A program made the position numbers and the translations under genes. From Oceanococcus sp. (lineage in GTDB: Bacteria > Pseudomonadota > Gammaproteobacteria > Nevskiales > Oceanococcaceae), in NCBI GenBank assembly GCA_030147945.1, contig JASBUL010000035.1, positions 35,109 through 99,108 of the forward strand: 64,000 nt of DNA, written 5' to 3'. Positions 16,202-26,049 of this stretch are shown piece after piece. Under the pieces are notes generated by a model. It did no database searches and was not told where the DNA came from. It was given only the letters and a program-made list of their open reading frames with translations. How positions within the stretch are numbered: position 1 is the stretch's first letter; each line of letters starts with the position of its first letter.

Positions 16202-16642
16202 ATGCCGACAAACAGCGCTTTGCATCAGGCCTATCTTGCAACCTGCTACCGGGTGATACCGGATACGGCGTCAGCGCCGTTCGATCTGCGCATTGGCCAG
16301 CATCACGCCGTGCTGGACGAACACCTGCGCGCCCACGGCTTCGAACAGGCCGCCTTTGTGACCGCCTGTAACCCGTACAGCGTGGCGCTGAGCGCGGCAC
16401 ACAACCGCCAGCACATGGCGGCGCTGCACGCCGCATTGCGCGCCGAAGGCTGGTCCTTCTGGCCCGGCCTGGGCATTCCCGACCATCCCGGCTGGTCGGC
16501 CGAACCCAGCGTCCTGATTCTTGGCATGGACAGACCCACCGCCTGCGCCTGGGGCCGCCGTTATGCCCAGAACGCGATCGTCCATGTACAGCGCGACCAA
16601 GCCCCCGAACTGATCTGGCTTGAAGCACCCGCCCAGCCCTAG
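16202..16642 (+). CDS. DUF3293 family protein
   Basis: A 146-residue cytosolic protein. The pattern FVTACNPYSVALSAAHNRQ, HAALRAEGWSFWPGLG and EPSVLILGMDRP.A is typical of DUF3293, a small conserved family of unknown role. It is divergent from mscS (66 bases between starts). Its stop codon lies inside a perfect 24-base palindrome that may act as its transcription end. Confidence 0.8.
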   Translation: MPTNSALHQAYLATCYRVIPDTASAPFDLRIGQHHAVLDEHLRAHGFEQAAFVTACNPYSVALSAAHNRQHMAALHAALRAEGWSFWPGLGIPDHPGWSAEPSVLILGMDRPTACAWGRRYAQNAIVHVQRDQAPELIWLEAPAQP

Positions 16643-16662
16643 GGCCTGTTAACAGGCCCTAG
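16639..16662. repeat. Perfect 24-base palindrome over the DUF3293 stop codon
   Basis: The two 12-base arms CTAGGGCCTGTT and AACAGGCCCTAG are exact reverse complements centred at 16650/16651. As RNA it would give a 10-bp stem with a UUAA loop. There is no T run after it, so it is not a classical intrinsic terminator. It could be a Rho-independent pause, an mRNA end-stabiliser or a protein site. Confidence 0.6.
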
Positions 16663-16715
16663 TCGAAGGAATCCCGCGACCGCTATCATCAGCGCAGATT
16701 CTCCCAGGCTCAGCC

Positions 16716-17744
16716 ATGTCTTCACCCCGCGCCCTGATCACCCCGGACGGAGCCCCGCGCTTCGGCCATTTTTCTGATGCCCTGCACATCAATCTTGGCG
16801 ATTATCGGCACCGCACCCCGATGGGCCGCCCGGCCGGCCCGCTGGCCCGCTGGATCGGCTACAAACGCTTTCAGTATTTCGGCATCCTCAGCGATCAGGT
16901 GCTGGCCGGCTGCGCCCTGGTTCACCTGCGCCATGCCGCCATGGCGTTTGTCTACGTCTACTCGCCCGAGCACGGCATGCAATTCGAAAAGACCTTCCGT
17001 CTGCCGCTGGGGCTGGGCTGCCACCTGGCCGATGATCCCTGCAACGGTGTCAGTCGCCTGCGCAGCGGGCGCACCCGTATCGAACTCGGCTACAGCGACA
17101 ACCCGCGGGTCAAGACACTGCGCGTCAAAGTCCCCGGCAAACTGGAGATCGAAGCGCAATTCGACGAAACCGCCGGCCAATTCCAGCCCATGTCGCTGTG
17201 CACGCGCATTGGCCGCAACGGCTGGGTCTATGCGCACAAGGTCGCCGCGCTGCCGGCCCATGGACACATCGAATGCCGTGGCCAGCGCTACGATCTGGCC
17301 GATGTGCAGGCCTACGCTCACCACGATTTTTCCGCCGGCTACATGCGCCGCGAGACCTTCTGGAACTGGGCCTGCTTCTCCGGCACCTCGACCGCGGGCG
17401 AAGCGGTGGGCCTGAACGTGTCCTGCGGCGTCAACGAAACCAGCTATTCGGAGAACTGTTACTGGCGGCAGGGTCGGCTGCAGCATCTGGGGCCTTGCCA
17501 GTTCGAATACGACTGGGATGCGCCAAGTGAAAGCGACTGGCGGGTGACCAATCACGACGGCCGTCTGGATATGGTCTTCACCCCGGCCGGGGCCTACACC
17601 GAGCGCTTCAACCTCGGTTTTGCGGCGAGCGATTTCAAGCAGATTTTCGGCCATTTCAGCGGCCGCATCGTGGGCGCCGAGGGCGAGCTGATCGAGGTGC
17701 TGGCCATGCCCGGTTTCGTCGAAGACCAGTACGCCAAGTGGTAG
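16716..17744 (+). CDS. DUF2804 family protein
   Basis: A 342-residue soluble protein of the DUF2804 family. Recognisable stretches are KRFQYFGILSDQVLAGCALV, FDETAGQFQPMSLCTRIGRNG, AYAHHDFSAGYMRRETFWNWA and HFSGRIVGAEGELIEV. The fold resembles lipocalin-like double domains seen in AttH/carotenoid-binding families, but the function is not established. It ends nine bases before arfB and may be co-transcribed with arfB and the GNAT-C39 gene. Confidence 0.82.
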   Translation: MSSPRALITPDGAPRFGHFSDALHINLGDYRHRTPMGRPAGPLARWIGYKRFQYFGILSDQVLAGCALVHLRHAAMAFVYVYSPEHGMQFEKTFRLPLGLGCHLADDPCNGVSRLRSGRTRIELGYSDNPRVKTLRVKVPGKLEIEAQFDETAGQFQPMSLCTRIGRNGWVYAHKVAALPAHGHIECRGQRYDLADVQAYAHHDFSAGYMRRETFWNWACFSGTSTAGEAVGLNVSCGVNETSYSENCYWRQGRLQHLGPCQFEYDWDAPSESDWRVTNHDGRLDMVFTPAGAYTERFNLGFAASDFKQIFGHFSGRIVGAEGELIEVLAMPGFVEDQYAKW

Positions 17745-17753
17745 CGTGATGCC

Positions 17754-18173
17754 ATGCTGCACATCAACGAGCATCTGCAAGTTCCACTGAGCGAGATCGA
17801 GCTCAGCCCGATTCGGGCCCAGGGCGCCGGCGGACAGAACGTCAACAAGGTCTCCAGCGCGATACACCTGCGCTTCGATATCGGCGCCTCCTCCCTGCCC
17901 GAGCGCACCCGCGAGCGCCTGTTGCAGCAGTCGGACCAGCGCATCAGCAAAGATGGCGTGCTGATCATCAAAGCGCAGCAGTTCCGTACCCAGGAACAAA
18001 ACCGCGAGGATGCCCTGGCACGTCTGGCCGAATGCATCCGGCGCGCCGATTTCAAGCCCAAGGCACGCAAGGCCACACGCCCGACGCGCTCATCGCAACG
18101 CAAGCGCATGGACAGCAAAACCCAGCGCGGACGGGTCAAACAGCTGCGCGGCCGGATCAGCGAGCGTGACTGA
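17754..18173 (+). CDS. arfB: Alternative ribosome-rescue peptidyl-tRNA hydrolase ArfB
   Basis: A 139-residue class-I release-factor-like protein that hydrolyses peptidyl-tRNA on ribosomes stalled without a stop codon. The GGQ motif is at residues 26-28 (AQGAGGQNVNKVSSA). The C-terminal 30 residues are a basic tail (KARKATRPTRSSQRKRM...KTQRGRVKQLRGR), which in ArfB inserts into the empty mRNA channel. It has no stop-codon recognition domains and the length matches E. coli YaeJ (140). Its last eight bases contain the GTG start of the GNAT-C39 gene (GTGACTGA), implying coupled translation. Confidence 0.95.
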   Translation: MLHINEHLQVPLSEIELSPIRAQGAGGQNVNKVSSAIHLRFDIGASSLPERTRERLLQQSDQRISKDGVLIIKAQQFRTQEQNREDALARLAECIRRADFKPKARKATRPTRSSQRKRMDSKTQRGRVKQLRGRISERD

Positions 18174-19275
18174 TCTAACCCTGCGCGCGGCCCGGCCCGA
18201 GGATCTCGACGCCCTGTGTGCGCTGGAACAACGCTGTTTCTCCAGTGACCGCCTCAGTCGCCGGCGCCTGCGTCACTGGATCACGGCCAGCAATCGGGAA
18301 CTGCTGATCGCCCTGCGCGACGGCGCGGCCTTGGGCTACGGTCTGGTGCTGCTGCATCGTGGCACCCGCCTGGCCCGGCTGTACTCGCTGGCCGTGGCAC
18401 CGGAGGCACGCGGTCTGGGCCTGGGCAAACAGCTGCTCACCGCCCTGGAAGCGGCCACCGCGCGGCGCGGCCGCCTGTACATGCGCCTGGAAGTGGCCGA
18501 GGACAATCAGCAGGCCATCGGCCTGTATCAGTCGCTGGGCTATCAGCGCTTTGGGACCTGGAATGATTACTACGAAGATCACCAGAATGCCCTGCGCATG
18601 CAGAAGCGCATCCGCTACGTACCGGAAAATCTGCAGGCCAACCGGGTGCCCTGGTATCAGCAAACCACCCCCTTCACCTGCGGCCCCGCCGCGGCCATGA
18701 TGGCCATGGCCAGTCTGCGTCCGACCCAGGAACTCAGTCGTGGCGAAGAGCTGGACCTGTGGCGCGAGGCCACCACCATTTACATGACCGCCGGCCACGG
18801 TGGCTGTCACCCGGTGGGCCTGGCCCTGGCCGCACAGCGGCGCGGTTTCAAGGCCCAGGCGCTGATCAACCGGCAAGGCCCGCTGTTCCTCGACGGGGTT
18901 CGCAGCAGCGAGAAAAAGGCCCTGATCGAGCTGGTACACGAGCGCTTCATCGCCAGCGCCCAGGACAACGGCGTGACGGTCCGCTACCAGGATGTCAGCC
19001 AGGACGATCTGGCCCGCTGGGTCGCCCGTGGGGCGATGATTCTGGTCCTAATCAGCACCTGGCGCCTGGATCGCAAGAAAGCGCCACACTGGGTTGCGAT
19101 CACCGCGATTGACGAGGAATGCCTGTACATCAACGACCCGGATCCGGGCGATGATCAGACCGCACTGGATTGTCAGTCGATGCCGATCGCACGCAGCGAT
19201 TTCGACCGCATGTCACTGTTCGGCCGTGATCGTTTGCGCACCGCAGTGGTGATCGAAAACGTCCGGGCTGACTAG
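18166..19275 (+). CDS. GNAT acetyltransferase fused to C39-like peptidase
   Basis: A 369-residue fusion. Residues 1-150 are a RimI-like GNAT domain (LARLYSLAVAPEARGLGLGK is the acetyl-CoA loop, NQQAIGLYQSLGYQRFG the last helix). Residues 160-369 are a papain-fold C39-like domain with Cys172 (TTPFTCGPAAAM), His308 (KAPHWVAI) and Asn323/Asp324 (YINDPDPG) as probable catalytic set. There is no ABC transporter part, so it is not a bacteriocin exporter. The start is a GTG at 18166, overlapping the arfB stop by 8 bases; the frame upstream is only the shadow of arfB. The convergent neighbour is a RimK-like ATP-grasp protein, a known association for this family, suggesting that one enzyme adds a peptide modification and the other trims or acetylates it. 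Substrate unknown. Confidence 0.85.
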   Translation: MTDLTLRAARPEDLDALCALEQRCFSSDRLSRRRLRHWITASNRELLIALRDGAALGYGLVLLHRGTRLARLYSLAVAPEARGLGLGKQLLTALEAATARRGRLYMRLEVAEDNQQAIGLYQSLGYQRFGTWNDYYEDHQNALRMQKRIRYVPENLQANRVPWYQQTTPFTCGPAAAMMAMASLRPTQELSRGEELDLWREATTIYMTAGHGGCHPVGLALAAQRRGFKAQALINRQGPLFLDGVRSSEKKALIELVHERFIASAQDNGVTVRYQDVSQDDLARWVARGAMILVLISTWRLDRKKAPHWVAITAIDEECLYINDPDPGDDQTALDCQSMPIARSDFDRMSLFGRDRLRTAVVIENVRAD

Positions 19276-19302
19276 GGGCACGCTGAGGAATCCAGCGCTT
19301 TC

Positions 19303-20769
19303 CTAGCGTCCGCGTTTTTCCAGCCGTCGGGCGAATTCGCTCATGATCTGCATGTACAGCTCATCGCCTAAAAACGCATCCTCAACCCCGTGCTCCAGGC
19401 TCGGATTGTCGTTGACTTCAATCACGTAGACCTTGCTGCCCTGCTGCTTCAGATCAATGCCGTAGAGACCATCGCCGATGATCTTGGCGGCCTTGAGCGC
19501 GGCGGCCAGCACCGCCTTGGGCACCTCGTAGGTCGGCAGGGTTTCAAACCCACCACTGCCCACCCGGCCCTCGCCATGCTTGTAGATCTGCCAGTGGTTC
19601 TTGGCCATGAAATAGCGGCAGGCGTACAGCGGCCGGTTGTTGAGCACCCCGATACGCCAGTCGTACTCGGTGAACAGATATTCCTGGGCAATCACCAGTG
19701 CCGAGGTGTCGAGCATGCCGCGCAGCACGCTGTCGAGCTGGGCTCGGTTTTCCGCCTTCTTGACCCCGACCGAGAACGAGCCGTTGGGAATCTTGAGCAC
19801 CAGCGGATAACCGAACTGCTCTTCCAGGGCATCCAGCGCCGCCTCATCAGCCGATGAGACGATGCGCGTGCGCGGCGTGGGCACCCCGTTGTAGCTGAAC
19901 GCATCCTGCAGAAACACTTTGTTACAGCAGCGCAGGATCGAGGTCGGATCATCAATCACCACCAGGCCTTCGATCTGAGCCTTGCGGGAAAAATGATAGG
20001 TGTGGTGCGCAATCTCGGTGGTCTCGCGGATGAACAGCGCATCAAACTCGCCGAGCCGCGCATAGTCCGCCGGCTGGATGAATTCGGGACGGATACCAAC
20101 CTTGCGCGCGGCGCGCTCCAGCCGTTTGAGCGCCGCAGCGTCGCTCGGCGGCAAGGCTTCTTCGGGATTGACCAGGATGGCCATGTCCCAGCGGCTGGTC
20201 TTGCGCTGCCGCGGGCTCCGCCACAAGCTCTGGGTGAACTGCTCCAGCGCGGCGAGAAAGGCACCATGTTCGTCGGCCTCAAGCTCGGCAAAGGACGACG
20301 CCGCGATGCTGCTAATCTGCCATTGCTGCTGCCATTGCAGCACGACCTCCAGCACCGGACAGGCAAAGCGCTCGAACAGCCGCCGCGCCAGGGCCCCCAG
20401 GGCGGGGTTCTCGGTCTGGCCGAAATACACCTTGAAACGCAGTTCGCCCGCCGCTTTCAAAGCCGGCTCCTGGCGTTGCAGATCCTTGAGCAGATCATTG
20501 ATCTGCATCAGGTACAGGGCCTCGCTGGCCAAATCATTGAGCGTGTTGACCGCCGGTATGACCTTGTGCCCGCGCGCTTCCGCCAGCAGCGAACAGTAAT
20601 AGCCGCGACTCAAGTAACGGTCGGTGGCGCACAGGTTGATGATGCGGGTCTTTTTCTGGCCCTTGACCGGGTGCTCGGCCAGATAGGTGTCGAACGAAAT
20701 CACCCCCTGGCTGGGAAAGTCCGCCGGCCAGTTGTCCAGCTCATCAAGCACCAGAAAAATGTTCGACAT
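19303..20769 (-). CDS. RimK-like ATP-grasp ligase with RLAN N-terminal domain
   Basis: A 488-residue protein. The first half (about 1-200) is the RimK-like ATP-grasp N-terminal (RLAN) region (FDTYLAEHPVKGQKKTRI, NLCATDRYLSRGYYCSLLAEARGHK). The second half is an ATP-grasp fold: RTRIVSS, YPLVLKIPNGSFSVGVKKAE, VIAQEYLFTEYDWRIGVL, HGEGRVGSGGF and VIEVNDNPSLEHGVED, which holds the Mg-binding Glu and Asn. Such enzymes make amide bonds between a carboxylate and an amine, often adding amino acids to peptides or proteins. The ATG at 20769 has GAGG a few bases upstream and is preferred to a GTG at 20775. The stops of this gene and the GNAT-C39 gene are 27 bases apart. Confidence 0.88.
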   Translation of the reverse strand: MSNIFLVLDELDNWPADFPSQGVISFDTYLAEHPVKGQKKTRIINLCATDRYLSRGYYCSLLAEARGHKVIPAVNTLNDLASEALYLMQINDLLKDLQRQEPALKAAGELRFKVYFGQTENPALGALARRLFERFACPVLEVVLQWQQQWQISSIAASSFAELEADEHGAFLAALEQFTQSLWRSPRQRKTSRWDMAILVNPEEALPPSDAAALKRLERAARKVGIRPEFIQPADYARLGEFDALFIRETTEIAHHTYHFSRKAQIEGLVVIDDPTSILRCCNKVFLQDAFSYNGVPTPRTRIVSSADEAALDALEEQFGYPLVLKIPNGSFSVGVKKAENRAQLDSVLRGMLDTSALVIAQEYLFTEYDWRIGVLNNRPLYACRYFMAKNHWQIYKHGEGRVGSGGFETLPTYEVPKAVLAAALKAAKIIGDGLYGIDLKQQGSKVYVIEVNDNPSLEHGVEDAFLGDELYMQIMSEFARRLEKRGR

Positions 20770-20868: not shown

Positions 20869-23800
20869 TCAGGGCTCGGCCGGGGGCTGGGTATCGGCGG
20901 CGCACAGCGGATAGGCCGGCCCGTTGCGGAAGCGGATCGGTGCACTGACTGCGGCCACTTCCGGACTTTGACCATCGCCATCAGCATCGCCCAGGTCCAG
21001 GATGCGCACGTAACGCCACTGCTCATCGTTGTCCGGCGTCACGTTGAAGCTGAAATTGGCACCATCATGCTCATGCAGCACAACACCGCCCGGCCCGATG
21101 ACCTGAATGCGCGGCGTAGCCAGACCAGACACCTCGACTTCAAAGCTCAGATTGTCTGCCGCCACGCGACTGCCCATGGGCCAGCGCACGTTGTTGCTGC
21201 TCAGCGCATCGAACGCGATCCGCACGGTGTTGTAGCCGTGAGCCAGGGCGTAGAAACGGCGCGCCTGCATGGCCGATTTGAGCGCCGCGCGCGAACGATC
21301 GGGCGCCAGCAGCACGGTCTTGGCCCGGTACGGCTGCGCCCACATCACACCATGCTCATCCTCGGCCCCGACCGGGCCCAAATGCCAGCCCTGATCCAGG
21401 GCGTGGGCGAACCAGCCGCCGTCCGGCGCATCGTGGTCCGCTTCGTAGTAATCGCCGGATTTGCCGAACATCTCGATCCCGACCATGTGCGCCGCAGCGT
21501 CTGGCCGGAATGCCAGATTGTTCCAGGCATAGGCCGGATCACCATCAATGACCAGTTCGCACGCGCTGTCCAGCGGACCGAAGTTGTCGCACACACTGTG
21601 GAAGGCATCCTCACGCCCGGGGTGGTTGAACACCGCCACCGCATCGTTGCCGCCGCCCAGGCTGGCCGGCAAGCCCAGCCACAGCCAGAAATCCTCCATA
21701 CTGGCCAGATAACCGGTGCCGGTTTTGGCATTGATGTTGTGCTCGGAGAAATACACGCTGATGTGGCCGAAACGGTCCGAGGTCCATTCGTAGCCGCGAA
21801 ACGCGCTGAACTGGTCATCGGAAGCCTCATCGGCCATGCGCTGGGTGGCTTGCCATTTCATCAGACCGTCCGGTGACAGCTGCAGACAATCCAGCAGCTC
21901 CGCCGAGGCACAGCCGGTATCCAGCGTGATCGGCAGCAACATGTTGTCGGAGTGCTCGGCACCGCCCATGAAATCCAGCCCCTGGGCTTTGCCGGCGGCG
22001 TAGTAATCCGCCGGCGTGGTGCCGATCTCACCGTCGGAGTAACCACTGTGCTCATGCAGGGAGCCGAGCAGGTGCATCAACGTCGGCGGCGTCGGCACAT
22101 GGCAAGCCGCCTGCGACGGTTCGCCCATCAGCGGCAGATCGGCCAGCGGCGGCGCGCTCAGCGGCACGGCCACCGCCTGCAGCGGCACGCGCACATTGTT
22201 GGCGTAGGGCTCGCCGATGTTGTGCGGGGTCTGTGTCGGCACGATGTACTGCCACTGGCGTGCGTCGATCTCGGTGCTGGTCAGCGGGGTGAAGGCGTTG
22301 TCGCTGTCATGGGTCACAAAGTAGTGAATGCCATGGCTGCCATAGGCGCCTTGACGCTGCTCACAGTCCTGCAGCGTGGCACCGCTGTAATCCAGCGGAT
22401 AGCCGGCCTGCTGGTCATACGACTGCCGCACCAGACCATTGCTCCACTCGTAGCTTTCCCCCGGATAGGGCCGCGCCACCGGATCATCGCCGGTGCCATC
22501 ATCCAGGCAGGCATCGTCACGGTAGTACGGGACCACCAGCGGATTGGCCAGCGAGGTCAGCCCAACCAGCTCGAAGCTGTAGATCAGCGACCCGGCATCG
22601 CCCTTGCCGGACACCTGCTCCCAGTTGTTGAAGGCCAGCGGCACGTTGAAGCTGGGGTCGGTGACATCGACGAAGAACGGACAACGGCCATTGCTGGCCG
22701 GCGGGATGGAGCCATCGTTGCCGACACACTCAAGCAGCGGAATCGGCGCGTAGCCGTCGACATTGCCCAGGTCATCGTTGCGCCCGTCGATCGGTACGCC
22801 CTGGGGCCGCAGCATGGTGTAGTAACGCCCCGCGGCAACCCCGGCAGCCGCTTCCTCGGCACTCGGCAGCATCGCCTCGCGGTTGTAATCCCAGCTGGTG
22901 TACAAACCATCTGGCGGGATCGGGTGCACGCGTACGCGGTAGTGGTAGCTGATGGCGTCGCGATAGAAGGTCTCGGTCTTGGTCACATTGGTGCCGGAAT
23001 CGGCACCCCAGACCTCGCGAATGCAGCGCACCGGGCCGCAACGCTCACCAATCAGGGCACTGTTGGCCTCCCAGTTGACCTGCTCATCCTCGAAGCCGAC
23101 CAGAGAGATGACCGAATCCGGCGACTGCTGGAATGCCCGACCCTTCCAGCGGTCGATCAGATCAGGCCGTTGCGCCCACTGCTCGGCCCCCTCGCTGTCA
23201 GGGGCGCGCACCCGCAGGTCACGCACCATCCAGCGGCCCGAAGCCTGGAACCGGTAAGTGTCGGTGGTCACGCTCAGACCGTCTCGCGGGAAGCGGTCGC
23301 TCGACGGGCACACATACATGTTCTCGCCGGCATCGAAGCTGCATTGCGCCGCATCACCGTGGTACTGCTCCAGCTCGGTCACGCACACCGTGCCGGACAG
23401 ATTGGCCCCGTACGAGGTGTTGCTGGTGCCCAATTTCTCCGGATCGTCGCCGGCAAACAGGTTGCGATCGATCCATTGATCGGCATCGGCCGCACGCTGG
23501 TAGTTGATGTAGCCGCTGGCGGCCGAGAAACTTGAACCGCCCGGACGCACCACCAGGTACACCGCGCGCACGCTTTGCGGTGCCAGCGGATCGAGCACAT
23601 TGATCAACTGCACGGCGTGCCAGTCGTCGGGGAAGTCCACCCCGCTATAGAGATCGCCTGCGTCACGCGCCATGAACACGATCTCATCGTCATCATCCAG
23701 GCCTTGCACCGGGTCGGGCTTGGCCCCTTGGCCTGCCGGATACTGCCGGGTGCAGGTGCCGTCGACCATCATCCAGCTTTCCACCCCGTGGGTGTGGCTG

Positions 23801-26049
23801 TCATCGCCGTTGTCCCACACATAGGTGTTCTCCGGATCGGTGCCGGAGTAGGTCGAGAAACCGGAATTGGCATTGGCCAGGAAATAAGGCGCGCGCTCAT
23901 CGACCTGCAACGGGATTTCGACAAACTCGCCGCTGTCAGCATCGAAACGGAACGCGGCCAGATTCTCGACCGCCACATGGCCCTGAGCACCGAGGCTGCC
24001 AGCCAGGGGATAAAGCATCTCGCCATTGTGCGCATCACGCACCTGACCAAGACCAACCGGGTCCAGCAGTATGCCGCTGTACAGCGCACCGGACGGGTAC
24101 GGATAGGCTACGCCGAAGGCCGCGGGCACCGACCACCCGGCCAGCTTGGAACCGGTCAGCACCACCGGCGCGGCGTCACGCGCCGTGCCCAGCAGCTGCA
24201 GCACCGCCTCGTCCAGCTCGCCGTCCAGGCCGACACCGGTTTCGCCAGGGCGCGTGGGATCGAAGCCTTCGGACAGATCAGACAGATTTTCGACCAGATT
24301 GCTCACCGCCGTTGCGGTGTGCTCGGCGACACTCTCGGGATTGCTGTCGAGCAGCGCGGTGAGCAGCGGACTGATGTCGGCGCTGGTGGCCGCCAGCAGA
24401 CCGAGCAAACCGCTGCCGTAGTCCGGCGCAGCGCCAGACACCTGCTGTGGCGTCACCGTGACGCGCACCGTGTCGGCATCGCTGGCCGCGTCGTCATCGA
24501 TGACACTCAACTCGAACAGCAGATCCGTGGCCACGGCCACCTCAGGCGCGGTGAAACTGGCCTGCAGTTGATCGGCATCATTCAGGGCAACCTGCGGCGC
24601 CCCATTGTCGAGCTGCGTCCACAACACGCTGCTGATCGTGCCATCGGGGTCGCTGCTGGCGCTGCCATCCAGGACCACGTCAGCGCCGCTTTGCGCCTGC
24701 TGATCCGCACCGGCGTCCGCGGCGGGCGGCAGGTTGTCGGTCTGGGCCGGTGACACGGCCACCGTGGTGGTGTCGCTGGCCTCGGCGTTGTCACTGTCGC
24801 GAACGGTCAGCTCGAACACCAGGTCGGTGGTTTGATCGACCTGCGGCGCCACAAAGCTGGCCTGCGCCTGATCGGCGTTGTTGAGCGTGACCGCCGGGCC
24901 ACTCAGCTGAGCCCAGAAAAAGCTCACGCTGCCTTCGTTGTCCGAACCGCTACCCGTCAGATCAACGTTATCGCCACTGAATACTGACTGGGCGGCCCCG
25001 GCATCGGCCAGCGGCGGCTGGTTGGGTGCCGGCGTCGGACTGTTCGACGGGGTGGCTGTTGGTGTCGCCGTAGGGCTGGGTGTCGCGCTTGGCGACGGAC
25101 TGACGCCCGGCGTGGGGCTGGCGCTGCTGGTCGGCGCCGGACTCGGCGAAGCACTGGTCTGCGGCGTTGCCGTCGGGGTCGGGCTGCCCTCGGGCAGGAT
25201 CGTGATTTGCACATCAGCGCTGTCGATCGCGCCATCGTCATCAGTGACCGTGAGGCGCAGCGTCACCTGTGTCTGCATGGACACGCTGGGCGCTATGAAC
25301 GTCGGTGAAGCCTGCTGCGCATCGCTGAGCTGAACCGTCGGCCCGTCCAGCTGCTGCCAGCGGAAACTGATCTGCCCATCGCTGTCACTGCCCAGCCCGG
25401 TGAGGCTGACGTCCCAGCCGGAAACGACGGTTGAGGGTGCCTGTGCAGCCGCCATCGGCGCCTGATTGGCCGCACCATGAAGCCGGATGTGATCAACAGT
25501 GGCGCCAAGATGGGCTCGGGTAGCCGCCATCGACACCAGTTGCGGGCAGCGCTCGGTGCCGCTGGCCTGAAGAAATGCCTCAAGCTGCGGGTCGCTGGCA
25601 AACGCGGCAGCAGCCTGATCAAACACCAGACTGCGTTGCTGCCCGGCCGCCCTCACCGGCGCAAGCAGCTGGATGCCGTTAGCCGGCTCGCAATCCGCAT
25701 CCAGCGTGAGCAACAACCTGGCAATATTGAACACCGCATCCGGGGCGTCGGACAGACCGTTCGCAGCGCGAAGATCCAGCGGAGTGACATAGGCTGCAGG
25801 GATCAGTTGGCCGAGTTGAATGTCGCCGATGGCGAAGCTCACTGGCTCATCGCCGAGGTAGCTGAAATGCCCCGCCGGGTCGGTCAGCCCCTGCCCACCC
25901 AAGCCGCTATAGGCCAGCCCCTGAACGGCGCTGTCGTGGAACTGCCCCACCTGGTTGGCGACTTGCCCGCCTCCGACGTCATCGCTGGAACAGCCCAGCA
26001 CAAAAACGCTGGCGCACAGCGCGGCCACACCTAACGGCGATCTGATCAT
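20869..26049 (-). CDS. Giant lipoprotein with PKD-like repeats and C-terminal DUF3604 (PHP-like) domain
   Basis: A 1726-residue protein. The signal peptide ends in VLGC (Cys20), giving a lipid anchor. After about 170 residues come three PKD/Ig-like modules (about 195-285, 347-440 and 445-545; hallmarks GLGSDSDGQISFRWQQLDG, GSGSDNEGSVSFFWAQLSG, DPDGTISSVLWTQLDNG). The first and second are separated by a 60-residue Ser/Thr/Pro linker. A large central region (about 600-1310) has many Cys and Trp and no family I recognise. Residues about 1320-1700 are DUF3604, with PHP-like metal ligands in GSLHEHSGYSDGE, GGAEHSDNM and VFNHPGRED. I infer an outer-membrane surface hydrolase; the substrate is unknown. 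No obvious operon partner. Confidence 0.85.
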   Translation of the reverse strand: MIRSPLGVAALCASVFVLGCSSDDVGGGQVANQVGQFHDSAVQGLAYSGLGGQGLTDPAGHFSYLGDEPVSFAIGDIQLGQLIPAAYVTPLDLRAANGLSDAPDAVFNIARLLLTLDADCEPANGIQLLAPVRAAGQQRSLVFDQAAAAFASDPQLEAFLQASGTERCPQLVSMAATRAHLGATVDHIRLHGAANQAPMAAAQAPSTVVSGWDVSLTGLGSDSDGQISFRWQQLDGPTVQLSDAQQASPTFIAPSVSMQTQVTLRLTVTDDDGAIDSADVQITILPEGSPTPTATPQTSASPSPAPTSSASPTPGVSPSPSATPSPTATPTATPSNSPTPAPNQPPLADAGAAQSVFSGDNVDLTGSGSDNEGSVSFFWAQLSGPAVTLNNADQAQASFVAPQVDQTTDLVFELTVRDSDNAEASDTTTVAVSPAQTDNLPPAADAGADQQAQSGADVVLDGSASSDPDGTISSVLWTQLDNGAPQVALNDADQLQASFTAPEVAVATDLLFELSVIDDDAASDADTVRVTVTPQQVSGAAPDYGSGLLGLLAATSADISPLLTALLDSNPESVAEHTATAVSNLVENLSDLSEGFDPTRPGETGVGLDGELDEAVLQLLGTARDAAPVVLTGSKLAGWSVPAAFGVAYPYPSGALYSGILLDPVGLGQVRDAHNGEMLYPLAGSLGAQGHVAVENLAAFRFDADSGEFVEIPLQVDERAPYFLANANSGFSTYSGTDPENTYVWDNGDDSHTHGVESWMMVDGTCTRQYPAGQGAKPDPVQGLDDDDEIVFMARDAGDLYSGVDFPDDWHAVQLINVLDPLAPQSVRAVYLVVRPGGSSFSAASGYINYQRAADADQWIDRNLFAGDDPEKLGTSNTSYGANLSGTVCVTELEQYHGDAAQCSFDAGENMYVCPSSDRFPRDGLSVTTDTYRFQASGRWMVRDLRVRAPDSEGAEQWAQRPDLIDRWKGRAFQQSPDSVISLVGFEDEQVNWEANSALIGERCGPVRCIREVWGADSGTNVTKTETFYRDAISYHYRVRVHPIPPDGLYTSWDYNREAMLPSAEEAAAGVAAGRYYTMLRPQGVPIDGRNDDLGNVDGYAPIPLLECVGNDGSIPPASNGRCPFFVDVTDPSFNVPLAFNNWEQVSGKGDAGSLIYSFELVGLTSLANPLVVPYYRDDACLDDGTGDDPVARPYPGESYEWSNGLVRQSYDQQAGYPLDYSGATLQDCEQRQGAYGSHGIHYFVTHDSDNAFTPLTSTEIDARQWQYIVPTQTPHNIGEPYANNVRVPLQAVAVPLSAPPLADLPLMGEPSQAACHVPTPPTLMHLLGSLHEHSGYSDGEIGTTPADYYAAGKAQGLDFMGGAEHSDNMLLPITLDTGCASAELLDCLQLSPDGLMKWQATQRMADEASDDQFSAFRGYEWTSDRFGHISVYFSEHNINAKTGTGYLASMEDFWLWLGLPASLGGGNDAVAVFNHPGREDAFHSVCDNFGPLDSACELVIDGDPAYAWNNLAFRPDAAAHMVGIEMFGKSGDYYEADHDAPDGGWFAHALDQGWHLGPVGAEDEHGVMWAQPYRAKTVLLAPDRSRAALKSAMQARRFYALAHGYNTVRIAFDALSSNNVRWPMGSRVAADNLSFEVEVSGLATPRIQVIGPGGVVLHEHDGANFSFNVTPDNDEQWRYVRILDLGDADGDGQSPEVAAVSAPIRFRNGPAYPLCAADTQPPAEP
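25010..25195 (-). repeat. Low-complexity Ser/Thr/Pro linker repeat in the DUF3604 gene
   Basis: About 60 codons encode alternating Ser-Pro, Thr-Pro and Ala-Thr units (for example SPSPSATPSPTATPTATPS). DNA units such as gccgtcgg and ggcgtcgg recur irregularly. It forms a flexible surface linker between the first and second PKD-like modules and is a likely site of length variation. Confidence 0.75.

What the first reader, a model, noticed from the sequence alone, without database searches (positions are those of the whole stretch)
18166..20769. GNAT/C39-peptidase fusion convergent with an RLAN ATP-grasp ligase: a candidate peptide-modification system
Seen: a 369-residue GNAT plus C39-like protease with Cys172, His308 and Asn323/Asp324 faces a RimK-like ATP-grasp ligase; stops are 27 bases apart. 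Established: RimK-like ATP-grasp enzymes join amino acids to peptides or proteins, and comparative genomics has already linked RLAN-type ligases with GNAT/peptidase partners. Inference: they form a charge-and-trim cycle in which one adds amino-acid tags and the other cleaves or acetylates them. The substrate is not known to me, so this remains one of the least explained pieces here.
Basis: partly seen in the sequence, partly recalled or inferred. Interest (0 to 1): 0.78.

Follow-up and report, generated by a model that had tools for sequence, protein, structure and literature searches.

The report
Acetylase-peptidase paired with peptide ligase
A predicted amino-acid-joining enzyme lies beside a two-part enzyme predicted to acetylate and cut peptides; in the bacteria surveyed the acetylating part is the joiner's near-constant partner, so the two likely cap, lengthen and trim the ends of the same, still unknown, peptide or protein tail.

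Summary
In detail: a 369-aa GNAT/C39-like (DUF3335) protein faces an RLAN-type RimK-like ATP-grasp ligase, stops 27 bases apart, catalytic residues intact and conserved. The pairing is real and far beyond chance: of 398 genomes of the window's phylum, 58 have DUF3335 and 57 of these also RLAN; in 55 of the 57 the two lie within 4 kb, in four relative layouts, of which the facing one seen here is the rarest. The pairing itself was already predicted (Iyer et al. 2009, recalled). What the survey adds: the constant partner is the GNAT, not the peptidase. All 15 RLAN genomes without DUF3335 have a stand-alone GNAT near RLAN; three loci have a GNAT fused to the ligase. These GNATs form one group, apart from RimI (100/99 support). 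The peptidase is an add-on; two further optional genes, DUF2817 (M14-like) and DUF155 (human RMND1 family), were found beside the C39 form and beside none of 27 stand-alone-only loci; neither was found in this assembly. Best reading: N-terminal acetylation plus C-terminal extension of one chain, with peptidases processing it. Function and substrate are inferred, untested.

The parts
18166..19275 (+). GNAT N-acetyltransferase fused to C39-like (DUF3335, PF11814) cysteine peptidase, 369 aa
18166..18645 (+). GNAT domain (residues about 1-160), closest solved structures RimI and Ard1/Naa10 N-terminal acetyltransferases
18646..19257 (+). DUF3335 peptidase domain (residues 161-364), 302 bits
18679..18681 (+). 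Cys172 codon, predicted nucleophile, invariant in 114 rows
19087..19089 (+). His308 codon, predicted catalytic
19135..19137 (+). Asp324 codon, predicted third catalytic residue (Asp/Glu)
19303..20769 (-). RLAN + RimK-like ATP-grasp ligase, 488 aa
20254..20691 (-). RLAN domain (residues 27-172), 162 bits
19309..20196 (-). ATP-grasp region (residues about 192-487), best structural matches RimK and ArgX/LysX
19255..19325 (.). region around the two stops; possible shared terminator hairpin (z -2.39), untested
17754..18173 (+). ArfB ribosome-rescue hydrolase; its end overlaps the GNAT/C39 start by 8 bases; local neighbour, not conserved with the system

Best explanation
The two genes likely form a write-and-erase pair for the two ends of one peptide chain: the RLAN ATP-grasp enzyme is predicted to add amino acids to its C-terminal carboxylate, the RimI-like GNAT to acetylate its N-terminal amine, and the fused C39-like peptidase to cut it. 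Shown: both genes intact, catalytic residues conserved, GNAT and ligase almost inseparable across families, ligase-GNAT fusion in one family, partner GNATs one group apart from RimI with shared substrate-side residues, peptidase domain variable. Inferred: the reactions themselves, that they share one substrate, that the substrate is a short peptide or exposed protein tail, and that the peptidase reverses or processes the product. By analogy with RimK the added residue would be Glu, but that is a guess. In some lineages with the C39 form, an M14-type DUF2817 peptidase and a DUF155 protein with a predicted membrane anchor join; neither was found in this assembly (93.5% complete).
For: 57 of 58 DUF3335 genomes carry RLAN, n=398 (Fisher p 1.1e-53, not corrected for kinship; RLAN in 25 families, both in 20); 55 of 57 within 4 kb, four layouts. 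15 of 15 RLAN genomes without DUF3335 have a stand-alone GNAT within 1.5 kb of RLAN. Of 155 RLAN loci (L107 and L166 appear to be the same genome), 7 are cut by contig ends with no partner visible; of the other 148, 142 have a GNAT within 2.5 kb and one (L080) only the C39 remainder at a contig end; the 5 left lie in genomes that hold DUF3335 elsewhere. Partner-GNAT profile hits: 144 in 742 kb within 2.5 kb of RLAN, 1 in 1,285 kb beyond (the profile was built from these GNATs). GNAT fused to RLAN-ATP-grasp in L093, confirmed by Pfam, and in L100, L106 by the profile. Tree: 47 partners on one side of a branch, 26 RimI on the other, 100/99. E21, R71, Y73 over 96% in C39-fused and complete in 33 stand-alone/ligase-fused; Arg71 and Tyr73 in none of 28 RimI rows. 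Ligase nearest RimK, ArgX, LysX; GNAT nearest RimI/Ard1/Naa10.
Against: No substrate, product or expression evidence. The GNAT could act on a free amino acid, polyamine or other amine; small-molecule acetyltransferases are also among its fold matches. The ligase scores far below the RimK equivalog (47 vs 331 bits) and carries an extra N-terminal domain of unknown role. C39 and GNAT could act on different molecules. The C39 domain's presence changes at least 3 times on the GNAT tree, so a peptidase is not essential to the core. No conserved substrate gene was seen nearby (largest clusters only).
Confidence: 0.42

Rival explanations
1. Protein-tag cycle: the ligase adds amino-acid tails to a protein (as RimK does to ribosomal protein S6) and the C39-like peptidase removes them, with the GNAT regulating either.
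For: RimK/RimB is a published ligase-protease pair on RpsF (PMC11957791 and PMC12239564, passages seen). The ligase's best structural matches are RimK and ArgX, including RimK with RpsF. GNAT nearest protein N-terminal acetylases.
Against: DUF3335 is absent in 15 of 72 RLAN genomes, so removal would need another enzyme there. The window's own genome has a separate RimK (233 bits) and RimI (128 bits), so those substrates look served already.
Confidence: 0.22
2. Small-metabolite pathway like N-acetylglutaminylglutamine amide: GNAT plus ATP-grasp make a short N-acetylated peptide (for example an osmolyte) and peptidases recycle it.
For: Same kit of GNAT + ATP-grasp + unrelated peptidase (the NAGGN trio is recalled); GNAT-ligase fusion exists; GNAT half matches TIGR03103 weakly (39 bits). 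Two unrelated peptidase families occur beside the ligase. No precursor gene seen among the largest clusters of short ORFs.
Against: TIGR03103 far below cut-off in the own genome (39 vs 569 bits); no amidotransferase among the six window proteins scanned.
Confidence: 0.22
3. Maturation of a ribosomally made peptide (graspetide-like): the ligase cross-links, the C39 peptidase removes a leader.
For: [quoted passage not shown]
Against: Among 5,113 short ORFs near the pairs, the 14 largest clusters printed are ORFs shared by Marinobacter records and unnamed loci L055-L057, and one (11 loci) that in L064 lies antisense inside DUF155. Precursors too divergent for this test could be missed. The window's peptidase carries no transporter domain.
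Confidence: 0.05
4. The GNAT and the peptidase protect the cell from a toxic ligase product by acetylating and cutting it (self-immunity or overflow control).
For: GNATs often detoxify amines (general knowledge); the pair stays together in all layouts.
Against: The GNAT's best family and structure matches are RimI/Ard1/Naa10 rather than resistance GNATs, though the latter are also among its matches. No toxin or exporter family among the six window proteins scanned.
Confidence: 0.07

Closest known systems
RLAN (PF14401) ATP-grasp ligases with GNAT/papain-like peptidase neighbours (Iyer et al. 2009, recalled; paper not held)
   Same: Domain composition and gene pairing; this locus is a member. 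That DUF3335 is often fused to GNAT, with a citation of Iyer et al., is in PMC10318531 (passage).
   Different: Here the GNAT is identified as the constant partner and the peptidase as optional; the DUF2817 and DUF155 links were counted.
RimK-RimB ribosomal protein S6 glutamylation system
   Same: RimK-like ATP-grasp ligase plus a peptidase of another fold.
   Different: RimB is a retropepsin; no GNAT in that description; the RLAN ligase has an extra N-terminal domain; RimK and RimI exist separately in this genome.
N-acetylglutaminylglutamine amide 'trio' (TIGR03103)
   Same: GNAT and ATP-grasp on one product, with a peptidase nearby (recalled).
   Different: Below cut-off here; the RLAN ligase does not match TIGR03103.
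RimI / Naa10 N-terminal acetyltransferases
   Same: Fold and nearest sequence family.
   Different: Separate group on the tree, different substrate-side residues, fused to a peptidase.

Membership tests
RLAN ATP-grasp (PF14401) | RLAN domain above Pfam cut-off followed by a RimK-like ATP-grasp domain | tested here: met
   162 bits vs 25; PF08443 45 bits vs 21; active-site residues 155/155
DUF3335 C39-like peptidase (PF11814) | full-length domain above cut-off with Cys/His/Asp | tested here: met
   302 bits vs 25, profile 1-206/206; residues conserved
DUF3335 C39-like peptidase (PF11814) | proteolytic activity | not testable with these tools
   sequence only
RimI S18-alanine N-acetyltransferase (TIGR01575) | score above equivalog cut-off 86.4 | tested here: not met
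   77-80 bits; apart from RimI on the tree, 100/99. Two C39-fused partner GNATs in other genomes do pass (91.8 and 87.9 bits)
RimK S6 ligase (NF007764) | score above equivalog cut-off 331 | tested here: not met
   47 bits
N-acetylglutaminylglutamine synthetase (TIGR03103) | score above cut-off 569 | tested here: not met
   39 bits in own genome
Graspetide (RiPP) cluster | precursor peptide gene beside the ligase | tested here: inconclusive
   none among the 14 largest short-ORF clusters; divergent precursors could be missed
Ligase-protease tag cycle (RimK/RimB-like) | tail added to and removed from a protein | not testable with these tools
   needs mass spectrometry
Amino-group carrier (LysW/LysX/ArgX) pathway | LysW-type carrier protein gene | not tested
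   ligase structurally near ArgX/LysX, carrier not searched

The most novel reading that the evidence does not exclude
A four-part ribosome-linked modification module: a RimI paralogue (GNAT) and a RimK-like ligase write on the two ends of a translation-machinery protein, the C39 and M14 peptidases erase, and DUF155, the bacterial counterpart of the human mitochondrial-translation protein RMND1, tethers the module to the membrane; the window carries its minimal two-gene form. If so, bacterial RLAN loci would give a simple system in which to find what RMND1 does.
Probability: 0.1. Interest if true: 0.82.

Novelty: new member of a known kind. Interest (0 to 1): 0.5.

Why it matters
The pair occurs in 57 of 398 sampled genomes of its phylum, yet my searches of the held library showed no study of its function. 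Splitting it into a constant core (ligase + N-terminal-type acetylase) and optional peptidase-side genes says which single deletions to compare, and the DUF155 link, if functional, offers a bacterial handle on a human disease protein family whose biochemistry is, to my knowledge, open.

Tried and rejected
Considered and set aside: (1) canonical RimI/RimK: both exist elsewhere in the genome. (2) NAGGN synthetase: below cut-off. (3) RiPP cluster: no conserved precursor among the largest short-ORF clusters, inconclusive. (4) ArfB as a system component: its end overlaps the GNAT start, but in the other loci searched only L070 and L071 have an ArfB, 4.8 kb away. Inconclusive, not evidence of new folds. 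(6) Cys47, Cys59 and His68 of RLAN are invariant in 39 relatives but vary among 155, so I dropped a catalytic role. (7) DUF2817 in the own genome: only a 19-bit partial M14 match.

Searches scored only 7,998 and 8,000 candidates and list 120 each. The samples overlap (at least L107 = L166). Fisher tests ignore kinship. The GNAT profile was built from the loci in which it was then counted. In one search one row labelled RimI (L227) was in truth the RLAN partner of G046; one search leaves it out and uses the window plus every second other C39-fused row (26 of 51). The 28 RimI rows are best RimI-like hits: 23 pass the RimI cut-off, 5 (L222-L226) fall just below. In one search the sets counted as 34 and 29 include the window itself. 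One search's 86 genomes include weak partial M14 matches; I counted the 50 with full-length matches by reading its table. DUF2817 and DUF155 are common without RLAN (25 of 50 and 17 of 38 genomes), and 3 of the 25 DUF2817+RLAN genomes (G016, G075, G220) lack DUF3335. Adjacency of both is dominated by one family: f40 gives 11 of 14 genomes for DUF155 and 13 of 14 sampled loci for DUF2817; the named loci add other lineages. rest on simple ORF calling, so gene starts are rough. Only some stand-alone or fused GNATs were checked by Pfam (L041, L081, L093, L166).
Full report
WHAT IS THERE. The window (contig 112 of a 3.14-Mb assembly in 133 contigs, 93.5% complete; [quoted passage not shown] The stops are 27 bases apart. 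It is the only RLAN match in the assembly. Close homologues of the same length exist elsewhere (98% and 94% identity), so the genes are not an accident of this assembly.

CO-OCCURRENCE. In a sample of 398 genomes of the window's phylum (drawn evenly by the tool) RLAN occurs in 72 and DUF3335 in 58; 57 have both. The single DUF3335 genome without RLAN is G008. In 55 of the 57 the domains lie within 4 kb; the two exceptions are G006 and G193. Over 75 RLAN places the DUF3335 domain is upstream on the same strand in 28, upstream opposite in 18, downstream same in 5, downstream opposite in 4 (the window's layout; families f1 and f74), and not within 4 kb in 20. Adjacency kept through four layouts and 19 family codes is hard to explain without a shared job.

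THE CONSTANT PARTNER IS THE GNAT. The 15 RLAN genomes without DUF3335 all have a GNAT (open frames of 150 to 323 aa) within 1.5 kb of RLAN. Three loci (L093, L100, L106, all family f74) carry a GNAT fused to the front of the ligase and, beside it, a separate GNAT-C39. L107 and L166 (identical ligase and contig length, evidently one Neptunicella genome) have a stand-alone GNAT overlapping the ligase stop and a GNAT-C39 1.5 kb off. In total, of 155 RLAN loci, 7 are cut by contig ends with no partner visible; of the remaining 148, 142 have a GNAT within 2.5 kb and one (L080) only the C39 remainder at a contig end; the other five (L044, L121, L122, L150, L192) lie in genomes that have DUF3335 elsewhere. 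As a background, the same GNAT profile gives 144 hits in 742 kb within 2.5 kb of RLAN and 1 hit in 1,285 kb further out. In a non-redundant set of 77 loci (under 75% identity) the picture is the same: 4 cut by contig ends, and a partner in 70 of the other 73.

ONE GNAT GROUP. Of 30 RLAN genomes searched for RimI, 22 have a hit over the RimI cut-off, in two of them also the RLAN partner itself (91.8 and 87.9 bits). On a tree of 47 partner and 26 RimI domains the two groups separate with 100/99 support (the bootstrap had not fully settled, and several RimI branches and one partner branch are long). Glu21, Arg71 and Tyr73 are conserved in over 96% of C39-fused partners and in all 33 stand-alone and ligase-fused ones; Arg71 and Tyr73 are in none of 28 RimI rows. 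So the three architectures probably act on the same kind of substrate. On that tree the C39 label changes at least three times (starred branches), so the peptidase domain has been gained or lost repeatedly.

TWO FURTHER OPTIONAL GENES. Clustering of neighbours turned up DUF2817 (PF10994, 346 bits), whose conserved HxxE, His and Glu look like an M14 metallopeptidase (residues; interpretation recalled), in 29 RLAN loci, and DUF155 (PF02582, 167 bits) in 19, plus locus L114. Of 35 RLAN loci with either, 34 have the C39 domain and one is cut by a contig end; 0 of 27 stand-alone-only loci have them. In G006 the split is physical: RLAN with a stand-alone GNAT at 2.35 Mb, and GNAT-C39, DUF2817 and DUF155 together at 0.246-0.249 Mb. 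Genome-wide, DUF155 is in 38 of 398 genomes, 21 of them with RLAN, all 21 also with DUF3335, and in 14 of the 21 within 6 kb of RLAN or DUF3335 (p 4.5e-8 for co-occurrence with RLAN); 11 of these 14 belong to one family, f40. Full-length DUF2817 is in 50, 25 with RLAN (p 2.3e-8), but 3 of these 25 lack DUF3335, so the tie to the C39 form holds for neighbourhoods, not strictly for genomes. Both families also live without RLAN. The DUF155 proteins have a C-terminal hydrophobic stretch fit for a membrane anchor in all 20 loci examined, weakest in L066. Human RMND1, of the same family, supports mitochondrial translation and has been proposed to tether mitochondrial ribosomes (PMC7564844, passages seen). 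The window's assembly has no DUF155 match and only a 19-bit partial hit for DUF2817.

MECHANISM. The most economical reading is a core of two writers, one for each end of a chain: an N-terminal-type acetylase and a C-terminal amino-acid ligase, with peptidases that process or reverse. RimK-RimB shows that an ATP-grasp ligase and an unrelated protease can form such a cycle (PMC11957791, PMC12239564, passages), and MyfB shows a RimK homologue making polyglutamate on a coenzyme (PMC8141765, passages). Whether the chain here is a free peptide or a protein tail is not settled by anything here. No dedicated encoded precursor was seen among the largest clusters of short ORFs. All activities remain predictions.

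WHAT WAS KNOWN. PMC10318531 (passage) states that DUF3335 members are often fused to GNAT domains and cites Iyer et al. 2009. Searches for RLAN, DUF3335, NCBI-style product names, the Pfam numbers, DUF2817, and DUF155 with RimK or ATP-grasp (listings only, apart from the papers named here) showed no experimental study of this pair and no report of the DUF155 link in the held library, which lacks most subscription papers.

VERDICT. A true, conserved and previously predicted gene pair; a member of a known kind. Added here are the counts, the core-versus-add-on split, and the DUF2817/DUF155 associations. Interest moderate, higher if the DUF155 link proves functional.

Noticed in passing
L062, L064, L066, L068-L071, L074, L079, L080, L083, L107, L110, L114, L131, L152, L166, L176, L177, L194 (not in the window): DUF155 (RMND1 family) genes with a C-terminal hydrophobic stretch sit near GNAT-C39/RLAN loci; 21 of 38 DUF155 genomes have RLAN and all 21 have DUF3335.
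   Followed up: partly
window 17754-18173: ArfB ribosome-rescue gene whose end overlaps the GNAT/C39 start by 8 bases, suggesting translational coupling here; not conserved in the other loci.
   Followed up: partly
window 20869-26049 (-): 1,726-aa protein with a lipoprotein-like start (eye only), three PKD-type stretches and, near the C-terminus, a stretch reading like a PHP-type phosphoesterase (eye only).
   Followed up: no
window 16202-17744 (+): DUF3293 and DUF2804 proteins of unknown function upstream of ArfB; neither is found in the other loci searched.
   Followed up: partly
window 19255-19325: Hairpin spanning the gap between the convergent stops with an A-run and a T-run, possibly a shared two-way terminator (z -2.39).
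   Followed up: no
L126:9562-10692: A FemAB-like (PF04339) gene directly downstream of RLAN in a Methylobacter record, another amino-acid-adding family.
   Followed up: no
L117 (G197:C15) and L116 (G274:C39): Extra, divergent DUF3335 proteins without RLAN nearby; the GNAT-C39 profile matches them only in part.
   Followed up: no
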